From: an uncultured bacterium
Lineage (GTDB): Bacteria > Krumholzibacteriota > Krumholzibacteriia > LZORAL124-64-63
DNA length: 64,000 bases
Direction of reading: 5' to 3'
Assembly (NCBI GenBank): GCA_937910695.1
Contig: CALEMW010000219.1
Location: forward strand, 1 to 64,000
Shown here: positions 39,309-56,511 of the stretch, one piece after another
How positions within the stretch are numbered: the stretch's first letter is position 1
How the letters are laid out: each line of letters opens with the position of its first letter
Notes under the pieces: model-generated
The model's database searches: none
What the model saw: only the letters and a program-made list of their open reading frames with translations
Told to the model about the DNA's origin: nothing
Made by a program: the position numbers and the translations under genes

Positions 39309-41177
39309 TCAGAAGGACTGCTGGAGGGATACGTGCAGCTTGGCTTCGTCGAAACCCAGGCTTCCGGGAAACCCGATGGCCAGGGAGACGTCGCCGCCGA
39401 CGCTCTTCGTCTCGATACCGAGACCGTATCCGCGGGGGCGATCGGTCGACGTGATGATCGCATCGGTGTCTGGATCCCTGCGGGACTGGAGAACGTAACC
39501 CAGGTCCAGAAACGTGTAAACCCGCGAGCGGCCCGGCTGCCCCAGGCGCAGTTCGAAGGCCAGCGAAGCCGTCTGCTCGCCGTGGAACTGATCCTCGCGG
39601 TATCCACGCAGCGAACGGGCGCCGCCAAGACGGGATTGTTCGATCAGCGGCACCAACTCCGCATCCCCCGAGACGCCCGCGTACTTACCACGGAGCGCCA
39701 AGCTCAGAGTCCGTTTCAGCATCGTCTCACCTTCGAAGTCCACACTGACCAGGGTCTGGAGTTCCTCTTGCAGGATCGAGACCGTTTCGCCTTCAACGGT
39801 CGGCCGTAGTTCCGCGGAACGCCGAGCGCTCTCGACCGTGAACAGTCCGTCCCAGCCACTGATGAAGGCGTCGAGGCGTCGATGTCGCAGCGAACCACGG
39901 GTCCGCCACCTTCGGCTGCTGGTCCACTCGCCCGTCGGAAATGTCCCGCGGTCACGGCCCATACCCAGCTCCACAGACCAGGCGGCGCGCAGCGGCAGCG
40001 ACAGATCGGCGTCGAGACGCAAACGGGAGTGGACGTCGGCGACGATCTCCTGATCCAGGGCCACCGCGGCGTCGAGGGGCATGCCCGCCACCAGGGGTTC
40101 GCGCCAACCGAAACCGATATGGGAACGGTCGTCGCCGTCGTCGCTCCAAGCGAGGTCGAGTCGCCGGCCAGTGCCGGCGATGTTGCCCAGCAGCAGATCC
40201 ACCTGACCGGAGAGGCGGGTTCCCTGTTCGTCGTCGGGTCTGCTCAGGCCCAGCATCACGGCCATCCGGTTGGGACGGAGCCGCGGTACGACAGGCCAAT
40301 GCACCCCGACGGTGCCGGGGGCGGCTGTGACGAATACCACCGGCTCGTCCACGCGCTGATAGATCCCCCGCGCCAGCAGCCGACGTCTCGCCGCCCGGAG
40401 ATCCGACTCACGGAAGGGTCGACCGGCTCTGATCCCGGAGGTTCGTTCCAGAAAGAGATGGGCGGCTCCCTGGCCCAACGTCGAGCTGATGGGACCCCAG
40501 AAGAGAGCCTCACCTGGGCTGAAGCCACCGCGGATGTCCACCGTGGCATTGCGGGGATCCACCCGGATCTCCCGCACGCTCCAGCCCGCGAAAGGATATC
40601 CTTCGTCGCCCGCCGTATTGAGCAGGCCGTCGACCGCCCGCTCCCAGGTCCTCCGGTTGCAGGGTTCGCCTTCCTGCGGCAGCCAACGTGCGAGCCAGGC
40701 TTCGGATCGGGTCGTGCTGTCGCCCGAGACCTCGACGCGCCCAACACGGAACTGGGGCCCGGGATCGACGGTCACCGCCGCCATTCCGTTGTAGCGGTTG
40801 AGCGTGACGGTACACATCAGGTAGCCACGCTCGTGCCACCGATCACGGAGTCGCGACGACCAGGACGTGAAGGCCGTCGTTCTTTCAGCGGTATCCTCTT
40901 CCCCCGAAGCGACCGATGCTGCCCTCGATAGAGCCAGTTCCAACAAGGTGGTCAGGGAGTCCTGAGGTGCGCCGAACAGACGTTCATCCTGAGCCCAGCG
41001 GGTAGGCCAGGTCGCTGCCCAAGCCCGGTCCGCATCGCCATAGCGGGACCAGGCAGACGAGCCCTCGACCCCCGGCGCCGGCCGCAACCGTTCCGCGGCT
41101 GAAGCAGCGTCGCAGAACAACAGGACCATGAGGCAGGCCCCGGCCCTAGAAACGAGCTGTCGATTCCAGCCGGACAT
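39309..41177 (-). CDS. BamA/TamA-family outer-membrane protein (POTRA + surface antigen barrel)
   Basis: POTRA-like [41 protein letters not shown]; terminal Phe (HVSLQQSF). Confidence 0.82.
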
Positions 41178-44100
41178 CGTGTTGCCACCCCCTTTGATCG
41201 CCCAAGCGGCGGCTGAAGTGGGACAACGTCACGCTCATCGTGCGGCTCGGATCCCAGGTAAGACGCGTGATCACGTCCACGTTCACACCAGGATAGGGGA
41301 AAAAGAAAGGACGCAAGGCGCCGGCCGCTTCGTCGCTTGCAACATTGGCCCAACGCACCTCCGCAGTGCCGCTCCAGCGGCGGGCCAGGCGCCAGCGGGC
41401 CGAGGGCTTCACGCCCCATTCCCGCTGCTCGACGCCGGAGACGTCGTCACTGCGGCGGGCATGGTCCACGGCGACCGCCAACTGGTTGCCCGGCGCACCC
41501 CGCCAGGTCGGTTCGACTTCATGATGCCAGACGACTGTGCCGTAGGAGCGGTTGCTGCTGAACCCCGTCTCCTCGGTCCTGCGGCGATCGAATTCCCGAC
41601 GGGTCCGCCATCGCACCGCTGTGCTGCGGCCGAGGTTGCGTACGAGAGTGCTCTGATGAGTCCGACGCAGTCGGCGTTCGGGGTGGGTGGCGTACTGGCG
41701 GTCGAGAGTTTCGTCCAGATCGTAGCGCAGGCGGAGGTCCCAGTCCCGGAGGTGTCTCAGAAGGTTGACGTCCTGACGCAGGGAGACTTCACCGAGCACG
41801 GCATCGCGCTCGTCGAAGATCGCGCCGCGGTCGAGACGTAGAAGTCGTCCGGTGTCTTCTGTGCGGCTGCGGCCGCGCGTGGTCAGCCGGGTGAACGTCG
41901 ACCAACCTCCCCACCAGCGGTCATCGCCGAGGACTCCGAAGTCCTGGCGCCAGGTTAGGTCGGCAGTCACCTCCGTGGTCGCCACCAAGCTGTCCGTGCC
42001 GACGGTCACGACCCGATAGTCTCCCAGTTCGTGCCCTACGTAGTCGCCGCCCTGGTTGTAGTCGCCCAGCCGATCCCCGACGAACACGATCTGCCTGTCG
42101 AGCACTTCGGTGCGGCTGTTGTCGACGCCGTAGATCAGGCCCCAATCGCTGCCCAGGGACGGCCAACGGCCGGTCAAACGAACCTTGGCGAGTCGGGTCG
42201 AGAGGTCTGCGCCATCGGGAACGAGGGTCCGACGCCAGGTGCCGTCGGCGTTCAGGCGCATGCCCGCTACAGCGGGCGATCCCAGGCGCCAGTCGACGGT
42301 GCGGGCATCCCGTTCGCGACGCCAGCCGTCGCTGCGTGATGAATCCGCCAGCCCGCGCGCCCAGCCGATCCGCCACGACCATGGTCGTTCTGGAGCCGCC
42401 GCCAGCTCAGCGCCCCAGCGGCGCAGACGCGAACCCTGCGACGATCCCGTGGCAGCCTCGTCCACGTACTCGCGGTGGAGCCAATCCACCGCTGGGCGCA
42501 AGGGGCCGAGTTCGATATCCAGACGATGAGCATCGAGGCTCCTGGTTACTTCAAGGGGGTCACCGCTATCGTTGGCGTCGGCAGCGAGACGCTGATGCCG
42601 CCCGCCGATGCTGCCCAACCGCCATTCCGCCTGCAGATCCAAGGAGTTGGCCTCGAGGTCAGAGCCGTGATCGAGACGGTCCCAGACACCTTTGAGTTCC
42701 AGGCGGCGTCTCCGGTCGCCGACCGTCCACAGAGCGTCGATCTGGGAGAGCGCATCGCGTTCATCGAGGAATCCAACCCGCCGCACACGGTCGCCGAGCC
42801 CCCAGCGTTCGTAGCGGAACAGGTCACGTGCGAGCAGGAAGGGTCGGAATCCGTCGCCAAGATCTTCATGGAGAGCCGCCAACGCGACCTCGCCGCCGGC
42901 GAATCCGTGTTTCCCGGAGTTCAGCGCCGCTCGCCAGGCCCGGCCACCATCATCGCCGTCGTCCCGTGCGGAAAGGACGTTCGCGTCGTAGTCGCTCATA
43001 TGCCACTCGGCAGCGAGCCAGGGTGCAAGGGTGTCGCCGAGGGACGTCTGCAGCGTTACCAGACGTTGGCGCTCCGGGATCTCCAGACGCCGTCCCAGAC
43101 GCCAGGCGCCCTCTCCCGGCCCCCGATAGGCGTAGATGGTCACCCCCGTCTGGGTGAGGGAGTCGACAACGTAATCCCCGTGGCCGACGCCCACGTAATG
43201 GAAGACCGCATCCAGATCCCCGGTGATGGTGTCCCAGACCGCGATCGCCACCCCGGCAGAATCCTCGAGCCTGTAGTGACCGTCGCCGGGCGTCGTCGGT
43301 GTAAGGCCGTTGGTGACGGCCAGCTCGGGATCGTCACCGGCGGCGGCGATGGCATCGCGGTCCTCGTCCGAAAGCTCGCCGTTGCGGGGCCGATCGGGAT
43401 CGTCACCTTCCTGGATCAGCCGCACGCCGAACCGGGCGGCGCCTCCGGCCAGCCGGGCCGTCGCCCCGCCACCGGCCACCGACCTGGCGAAGGGTCCTTC
43501 ACCCTCCTCGTACTCCACGACGATTTCGCTTTCAGCCGTGATCAGCCGCTTGTAGGTGAAGGTCACCGTGCCGCGGATATAGTCCACCACGTAATCGCGA
43601 TCGGCGCCGCGCACGAGCTGCTCACCATCGAGGAACACCCTCTCGGAACCCGCGACGAGGAACAGAACCGCACCGGCGTCGCTTCCCAGGACATAGGGCC
43701 CTTGGTTCGATTCCTGCCCCCGCAGCTGGGCGGTCCGGTACCGGCCGCGTGGAGAACCTGCCAGCAGCTCACCGCCGGCTTCGCCACCCCGTGTCTCGAC
43801 CAAGGCTCCTTGGAGCTTGCGGCGATAATCACCGAAGACGGTCCCGTCACGCCTCGCCACGAAGTCGCCCAGCACGGCCCGCCAGCGGGGCGCCGTCACA
43901 TCCACACGCACACGGTCGATGTCCCGCAGCTCCTCGGTGTTGCCTTCGGGTACGACCGGCAGGTTGTCGTCGCTGAGCACGGCGCGTACGGAAATGTCCT
44001 CGGTCAGGCGCCCGGCGATGTTCAGGCGCAGGTTCTGGTCGACGGTCAATTCGCGTCGCGAGCCCGAAGCCATGCGCACGGTCTTGCTGCCGGTCACGTC

Positions 44101-56430: not shown

Positions 56431-56482
56431 GGCAGTCGCCCCGGACCACAGAGAAGGATACTCGAAGAGGTTGGCATCCCAA

Positions 56483-56511
56483 AGGATAAAGGAACCTGGG
56501 AATGTTGTCAA
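56483..56511 (-). promoter_or_regulatory. sigma70-type promoter upstream of Trm112-PorU-PorV genes
   Basis: TTGACA (56506-56511) -17 bp- TATCCT (56483-56488) on minus. Confidence 0.75.

What the first reader, a model, noticed from the sequence alone, without database searches (positions are those of the whole stretch)
39309..56511. T9SS-like surface-protease module: Trm112 - PorU(C25) - PorV - M6 protease - two DUF5683-like paralogs - NHL lipoprotein - giant OM barrel - BamA-like
Seen: nine consecutive minus-strand genes, many overlapping or closely spaced, after one strong promoter (56483-56511). Established: in Bacteroidota T9SS, PorU is the C25-type sortase and PorV its OM partner/cargo shuttle. 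Inference: this lineage has a compact or divergent type-IX-like secretion/attachment machine with a putative cargo protease and two OM barrels in the same locus. No PorK/L/M/N/P/T or SprA was recognised in the window, so it is either split across the genome or a reduced or different system.
Basis: partly seen in the sequence, partly recalled or inferred. Interest (0 to 1): 0.75.

Follow-up and report, generated by a model that had tools for sequence, protein, structure and literature searches.

The report
Motorless type IX secretion operon
This is a real, deeply conserved gene cluster for attaching secreted proteins to the outside of a poorly known bacterium (phylum Krumholzibacteriota); it belongs to the "type IX" protein export machinery known from Bacteroidota, but the usual motor genes cannot be detected in the lineage, and the cluster includes a large, uncharacterised membrane-barrel protein shared by many related phyla.

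Summary
Confirmed and extended. The window lies in a Candidatus Krumholzibacteriota genome. Nine minus-strand genes (Trm112, PorU, PorV, M6 metalloprotease, two DUF5683-like paralogues, NHL lipoprotein, 1161-aa barrel, Omp85) are real. PorU passes its curated sortase HMM; PorV passes the PorV/PorQ family HMM but not the PorV equivalog. The order is kept across all eight families of the phylum sampled, and in Eisenbacteria and Zixibacteria. The rest of a type IX system is elsewhere in the genome: full-length SprA translocon and 93 over-threshold C-terminal sorting domains. PorU and the M6 protease carry the same sorting domain.

Two surprises. (1) In 20 SprA-positive genomes, GldL, GldM and GldN are found only in three core Bacteroidota and in none of 17 other FCB genomes; GldL is below threshold in all 80 Krumholzibacteriota. 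(2) The "giant barrel" is an unnamed FCB-wide family with a predicted ~36-38 strands and an SprA-like small domain, present in 76/80 Krumholzibacteriota and in Bacteroidota, Balneolota, Ignavibacteria and Calditrichota. In Sphingobacteriales/Cytophagales it sits behind a giant histidine kinase.

Best reading: the attachment half of a T9SS variant whose power source is unknown.

The parts
56114..56482 (-). Trm112-like small zinc-ribbon protein; true start probably internal (domain at residues 64-103); overlaps porU by 4 bp
   Evidence: Pfam PF03966 43.1 bits; overlap; orthologues 62-108 aa next to porU
52044..56117 (-). PorU, C25-type sortase with C-terminal sorting domain (1357 aa); His (GHG, 880) and Cys (SC, 914) motifs present
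   Evidence: NF033707 451.7 bits vs cut-off 420; PF01364 229 bits; own-genome CTD profile E 1e-14; GHG motif in all full-length orthologues, SC motif in all but two (L087, L089)
50935..51960 (-). PorV/PorQ-family outer-membrane barrel (341 aa), putative cargo shuttle
   Evidence: NF033709 168.9 bits vs 90; NF033710 equivalog 105.6 vs 250, not reached; PF19572 53.6 bits vs 27
47367..50915 (-). M6-type secreted metalloprotease with intact HExxHxxGxxD and a CTD; putative T9SS cargo (1182 aa)
   Evidence: PF05547 40.1 bits; NF052323 'M6-like inactivated' 181.5 bits, below cut-off 600; HExxH motif in 16/17; CTD profile E 3.5e-9
46438..47337 (-). DUF5683-like protein A (~299 aa, likely ATG start 47337): signal peptide/TM, hydrophobic PGxGE hairpin, helical body, C-terminal aromatic
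   Evidence: alignment A4; no family of its own; resemblance to protein B read from alignments A3/A4
45640..46422 (-). DUF5683-like protein B (260 aa): helical core plus C-terminal beta-hairpin
   Evidence: PF18935 24.6 bits vs cut-off 26.7; alignment A3; AlphaFold2 pLDDT 77, core >90; no PDB match
44564..45640 (-). NHL beta-propeller lipoprotein (~358 aa, ATG 45640; lipobox LGGC)
   Evidence: PF01436 56.9 bits; NF035926 67.8 bits; sequence
41146..44631 (-). Giant outer-membrane beta-barrel (1161 aa; true start possibly GTG 44556), about 36-38 predicted long strands, one or two copies of a small SprA-like beta domain
   Evidence: AlphaFold2 pLDDT 82.7, pTM 0.73; Foldseek best hits SprA, low TM-score; hhalign to SprA 96% over 93 columns only; present in 76/80 genomes, mostly single-copy
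39309..41177 (-). Omp85-superfamily protein with POTRA (622 aa), a paralogue and not the housekeeping BamA
   Evidence: PF07244 35 bits; BamA model 27 bits here vs 502.7 bits for the true BamA at C160
37237..39297 (-). ligA (NAD-dependent DNA ligase), conserved downstream neighbour in part of the phylum; not part of the system

Best explanation
The locus encodes the surface-attachment half of a type IX secretion system variant in Krumholzibacteriota. Proposed path: cargo with a signal peptide and a C-terminal sorting domain crosses the inner membrane by Sec and the outer membrane through SprA (encoded elsewhere); PorV takes the CTD at the SprA side opening and carries the cargo to PorU, which cuts off the CTD and may join the cargo to a surface glycolipid. 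The M6 protease is a T9SS cargo encoded beside its own sortase. The NHL propeller lipoprotein may play the part of the P. gingivalis propeller protein PorZ. The giant barrel and the Omp85 paralogue form a second sub-block, read here as a large OM pore or scaffold with its own assembly factor. No GldL/M/N motor is detectable, so the energy source is either a very divergent motor, another ExbB-type motor, or cargo folding outside. Shown: genes, order, conservation, SprA, CTDs, absence of HMM-detectable motor genes. Inferred: all transport steps, and the roles of the NHL protein, the two DUF5683-like proteins, the barrel and the Omp85 protein.
For: PorU 451.7 bits above cut-off, PorV_fam 168.9 above cut-off. 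SprA, 2265-aa open frame, 472 bits vs 200, at C22. 116 CTD matches, 93 over the curated cut-off; a CTD profile built from the genome's own top hits matches window PorU (E 1e-14) and M6 (E 3.5e-9) and nothing else in the operon. Catalytic motifs conserved. Gene order kept in 20 loci from 8 families, in Eisenbacteria (L109, L136) and Zixibacteria (L112, L162). SprA in 20/20 genomes; GldL, GldM, GldN over threshold only in the 3 core Bacteroidota; GldL over threshold in 0/80 of the phylum. In Zixibacteria PorV carries a ~520-aa insertion with Reg_prop propeller repeats; PorZ in P. gingivalis is a double propeller that works with PorU, PorV and PorQ (PMC8545088).
Against: No experiment. GldK, SprE/PorW, PorT, PorQ, PorZ and PorX were not searched. 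GldL/M/N absence rests on HMMs trained on Bacteroidota. No A-LPS attachment pathway was looked for. The barrel, the Omp85 protein, the NHL protein and the DUF5683-like proteins are linked to T9SS only by gene order.
Confidence: 0.75

Rival explanations
1. Ordinary complete T9SS with a motor too divergent for the available HMMs; nothing mechanistically new.
For: The models were trained on Bacteroidota; the genome has seven MotA/ExbB-family matches, none assigned to a function here; in Balneolota SprA scores 1545 bits yet GldL/M/N also fail there, which may mean the motor models are narrow.
Against: Three independent motor/ring models fail in the same 17 genomes in which the SprA model rings, 16 of them over its cut-off, while all three ring over cut-off in the 3 core Bacteroidota; no motor-like gene lies in the PorU operon or among the annotated SprA neighbours.
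Confidence: 0.4
2. Two unrelated modules that happen to be adjacent: a T9SS attachment module (PorU-PorV-M6, perhaps the DUF5683 pair) and an OM-biogenesis or envelope-sensing module (NHL-barrel-Omp85).
For: NHL-barrel-Omp85 occurs without PorU/PorV next to it in Calditrichota (L117, L122; L122 has only a partial PorU-profile match nearby), barrel-Omp85 in Neomarinimicrobiota (L126), barrel alone in Bacteroidota, where in Sphingobacteriales/Cytophagales it follows a ~1240-aa histidine kinase.
Against: The whole order is kept at about 27-30% identity across Krumholzibacteriota, and also in Eisenbacteria and Zixibacteria, although accA/ligA are kept nearby too in part of the phylum, so some of this may be slow genome rearrangement.
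Confidence: 0.4
3. PorU/PorV/M6 are merely surface proteins of a lineage without type IX secretion.
For: PorV does not reach the PorV equivalog cut-off; motor and ring genes not found.
Against: Full-length SprA and 93 over-threshold CTDs; PorU above its own cut-off; PorU and M6 share the genome's CTD.
Confidence: 0.04

Closest known systems
Type IX secretion system of Bacteroidota (P. gingivalis Por / F. johnsoniae Gld-Spr)
   Same: SprA translocon, PorU sortase, PorV-family shuttle, CTD cargo, PorU itself bearing a CTD
   Different: GldL, GldM, GldN not detectable; PorU and PorV sit in one conserved operon with M6, two DUF5683-like proteins, an NHL lipoprotein, a giant barrel and an Omp85 protein
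PorU-PorV-PorQ-PorZ attachment complex (P. gingivalis; PMC8545088)
   Same: PorU and a PorV/PorQ-family barrel adjacent; a beta-propeller protein in the locus
   Different: The propeller here is a small NHL lipoprotein without a detectable CTD; in Zixibacteria a Reg_prop propeller is inserted in PorV itself
SprA/Sov 36-strand translocon (PDB 6h3i, 8gl6, 8gl8)
   Same: Giant single-chain OM barrel; shares a ~50-90 residue small beta domain; best Foldseek hits of the window barrel
   Different: Half the length (1161 vs ~2250 aa), no SprA_N match, TM-scores 0.24-0.26 only, profile similarity limited to the small domain; a separate full SprA exists in the genome
BamA/TamA/TamL (Omp85 superfamily)
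   Same: POTRA plus Omp85 barrel
   Different: Paralogue distinct from the genome's BamA (27 vs 502.7 bits), encoded next to the giant barrel; subfamily not resolved here

Membership tests
Type IX secretion system | SprA/Sov outer-membrane translocon | tested here: met
   2265-aa frame at C22, TIGR04189 472.2 bits vs cut-off 200; 11 other Krumholzibacteriota genomes also match, one (G075) below cut-off
Type IX secretion system | PorU C25 sortase | tested here: met
   NF033707 451.7 vs 420; GHG and SC motifs
Type IX secretion system | PorV/LptO shuttle | tested here: inconclusive
   PorV/PorQ family cut-off met (168.9 vs 90), PorV equivalog cut-off not met (105.6 vs 250)
Type IX secretion system | Cargo with C-terminal sorting domains | tested here: met
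   116 TIGR04183 matches, 93 over cut-off
Type IX secretion system | PorL/M (GldL/M) proton-driven motor | tested here: not met
   No over-threshold GldL in 80 genomes of the phylum, no GldM in the 12 tested; the same models ring in Fulvivirga, Pedobacter and Flavobacteriales
Type IX secretion system | PorK/N (GldK/N) periplasmic ring | tested here: not met
   GldN absent from 12 Krumholzibacteriota, present in the 3 Bacteroidota controls; GldK not searched
Type IX secretion system | SprE/PorW, PorT, PorP/SprF, PorX/PorY | not tested
   Searches reserved for the translocon, cargo, motor and Omp85 questions
SprA family (window barrel as a member) | TIGR04189/PF14349 over cut-off, ~2200 aa | tested here: not met
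   28.9 bits over 52 residues, no PF14349 hit; profile match limited to 93 columns
BamA (window Omp85 as a member) | TIGR03303 over cut-off | tested here: not met
   38.5 bits as whole protein vs 297; the true BamA is at C160, 502.7 bits
DUF5683 (PF18935) | Pfam gathering score | tested here: not met
   24.6 vs 26.7 for protein B, no hit for protein A; similar, not members by the curated cut-off

The most novel reading that the evidence does not exclude
Most FCB phyla outside core Bacteroidota run type IX export without the GldLM rotary motor, and an FCB-wide family of ~36-38-strand barrels, in several phyla with a dedicated Omp85 partner, forms a second giant outer-membrane pore or scaffold that works with the PorU-PorV attachment complex.
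Probability: 0.2. Interest if true: 0.85.

Novelty: new variant of a known kind. Interest (0 to 1): 0.6.

Why it matters
T9SS transport is thought to need the GldLM motor. SprA-, PorU- and CTD-bearing lineages with no detectable motor would either reveal a differently powered form of the machine or a hidden motor. The unnamed giant barrel, inherited across FCB phyla and found beside T9SS genes in some and beside a sensor kinase in others, is a concrete target: culturable Pedobacter and Fulvivirga carry it.

Tried and rejected
Barrel as a short SprA: rejected as membership, though the nearest folds are SprA (TM 0.24-0.26, so fold identity is not claimed). Omp85 gene as the cell's BamA: rejected. 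M6 as an inactivated protease, as the NCBI model NF052323 would name it: rejected, HExxH intact in 16/17. Structure search of DUF5683-like B: no match. PDB sequence search with the barrel profile: nothing significant. SprA neighbourhood as a source of motor genes: none recognised; annotated neighbours include lptF/G-like, M28 peptidase, nusA, PTS and PEP-utilising enzymes. Promoter claim: not above chance. A paper search for Krumholzibacteriota with type IX secretion returned none; no paper found states motor absence outside core Bacteroidota, in an open-access library only.

Full report
The observation. ORF calling gives the nine minus-strand genes at the stated coordinates, with gaps of -32 to +83 bp. 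Pfam and NCBIfam name Trm112, C25 protease/PorU, PorV family, M6 peptidase, a sub-threshold DUF5683 match, NHL repeats, and POTRA/Omp85; the 1161-aa protein and the first DUF5683-like paralogue have no family. accA and dnaE upstream and ligA downstream are about as close, so the unit may be longer.

Where it is. The window is part of a 142-kb contig of a 4.1-Mb draft, 94% complete. Its nearest named relatives in the genome collection are Candidatus Krumholzibacteriota or Krumholzibacteriia MAGs, and the barrel tree places it inside that group.

Is it type IX? PorU passes its curated model (451.7 bits, cut-off 420); PorV passes the PorV/PorQ family model but not the PorV equivalog. The genome holds a full-length SprA elsewhere (C22, 2265-aa frame, 472 bits, cut-off 200), near lptF/G-like, M28 and nusA genes. 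The T9SS sorting-domain model matches 116 places, 93 over its cut-off. A profile built from the genome's own 30 best CTDs matches the C-termini of window PorU (E 1e-14) and M6 (E 3.5e-9), and most orthologues of both, but no other operon protein. The PorU His motif (GHG) is in all full-length orthologues and the Cys motif (SC) in all but two; the M6 HExxH is intact in 16 of 17. This is the basis for calling M6 a putative cargo and PorU a putative sortase; neither activity is shown.

Conservation. The barrel has a match in 76 of 80 genomes of the phylum (45 of 46 good ones), mostly single-copy. In 20 loci taken from eight families the order (accA) Trm112-PorU-PorV-M6-DUFa-DUFb-NHL-barrel-Omp85 (ligA) is never rearranged, with identities down to about 27-30%; L078 and L088 are cut by contig ends, L083 lacks PorV and M6 next to the rest, L081 lacks M6, and the NHL hit fails in L087 and L089. 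Outside the phylum the full order is in Eisenbacteria (L109, L136) and Zixibacteria (L112, L162); NHL-barrel-Omp85 without an adjacent PorU-PorV pair in Calditrichota (L117, L122); barrel-Omp85 in Neomarinimicrobiota (L126); barrel alone in Bacteroidota, Balneolota and Ignavibacteria. A FastTree of 76 barrels needs 12 changes of phylum label (minimum 10, shuffled mean 32.5), which fits mainly vertical descent; some rows have long branches.

The motor. The same 20 genomes were searched with GldL, GldM, GldN and SprA models. SprA matches in all 20 (19 over its cut-off). GldL, GldM and GldN ring over cut-off in the same three, Fulvivirga, Pedobacter and a Flavobacteriales MAG, and in none of the 17 others: 12 Krumholzibacteriota, one each of Zixibacteria, Eisenbacteria, Calditrichota, Ignavibacteria, and Gracilimonas. 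GldL is over cut-off in none of 80 Krumholzibacteriota. The models are Bacteroidota-trained, so divergence is a live rival; the genome has seven MotA/ExbB-family matches with no assigned role. A published secretion-system survey whose T9SS model includes GldK, GldL, GldM and GldN found it only in Bacteroidetes (PMC4793230), while SprA is called FCB-specific and reported in six of seven other FCB phyla's context by PMC12611786. I found no paper stating motor absence, in an open-access library only.

The barrel. AlphaFold2 on 33 orthologues gives pLDDT 82.7, pTM 0.73 and, by my count of the DSSP string, about 36-38 long strands after residue 178; closure could not be inspected because no coordinates are given. 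Foldseek's best three hits are SprA (E about 1e-11 to 1e-10) but with TM-scores of 0.24-0.25, then MtrB and other large barrels. Profile comparison with 15 SprA proteins finds only a small domain in common (96%, 93 columns); a second stretch of similar strand pattern lies at residues 60-132 (my reading of the DSSP and sequence). It is therefore treated as a separate family. In Pedobacter, Fulvivirga and a Cyclobacteriaceae MAG the gene directly follows or overlaps a 1212-1247-aa ORF; all eight that were scanned carry histidine-kinase domains.

Other parts. The Omp85 protein is a paralogue, not BamA. The DUF5683-like pair looks paralogous: helical, with a PGxG hairpin and C-terminal aromatic; protein B has a confident helical core and no PDB match. 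In Zixibacteria PorV is ~870 aa because ~520 aa with Reg_prop repeats and weak LysM similarity are inserted after its first 66 residues. PorZ, the propeller partner of PorU in P. gingivalis, resembles the periplasmic part of a propeller-bearing histidine kinase (PMC8545088), so this fusion hints that a PorZ-like function sits on PorV there; this is inference.

Verdict. A real, conserved operon; the attachment half of a T9SS variant with an undetected motor and an uncharacterised giant barrel family. New variant of a known kind.

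Noticed in passing
L112:992-3607 and L162:1401-4010 (Zixibacteria): PorV carries a ~520-aa insertion with Reg_prop propeller repeats and weak LysM similarity, a possible PorZ-in-PorV fusion
   Followed up: partly
L123, L130, L137, L150, L155, L159, L163, L167, L169, just upstream of the barrel: A 1212-1247-aa ORF directly abuts or overlaps the giant-barrel gene in Sphingobacteriales/Cytophagales; the eight scanned (all but L155) are sensor histidine kinases
   Followed up: partly
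G082 (Gracilimonas mengyeensis, L125), G084 (Ignavibacteriales, L120): Strong SprA (1545 and 1043 bits) without over-cut-off GldL, GldM or GldN matches
   Followed up: no
G000:C193:36762-37711: Two adjacent MotA/ExbB-family matches in open frames of 431 and 474 aa, unusually long for ExbB; candidate unassigned motor
   Followed up: no
L083 (G075): The operon in this member lacks PorV and M6; a different CTD-bearing protein (482 aa, CTD 95 bits) sits just upstream of the DUF5683-like gene
   Followed up: no
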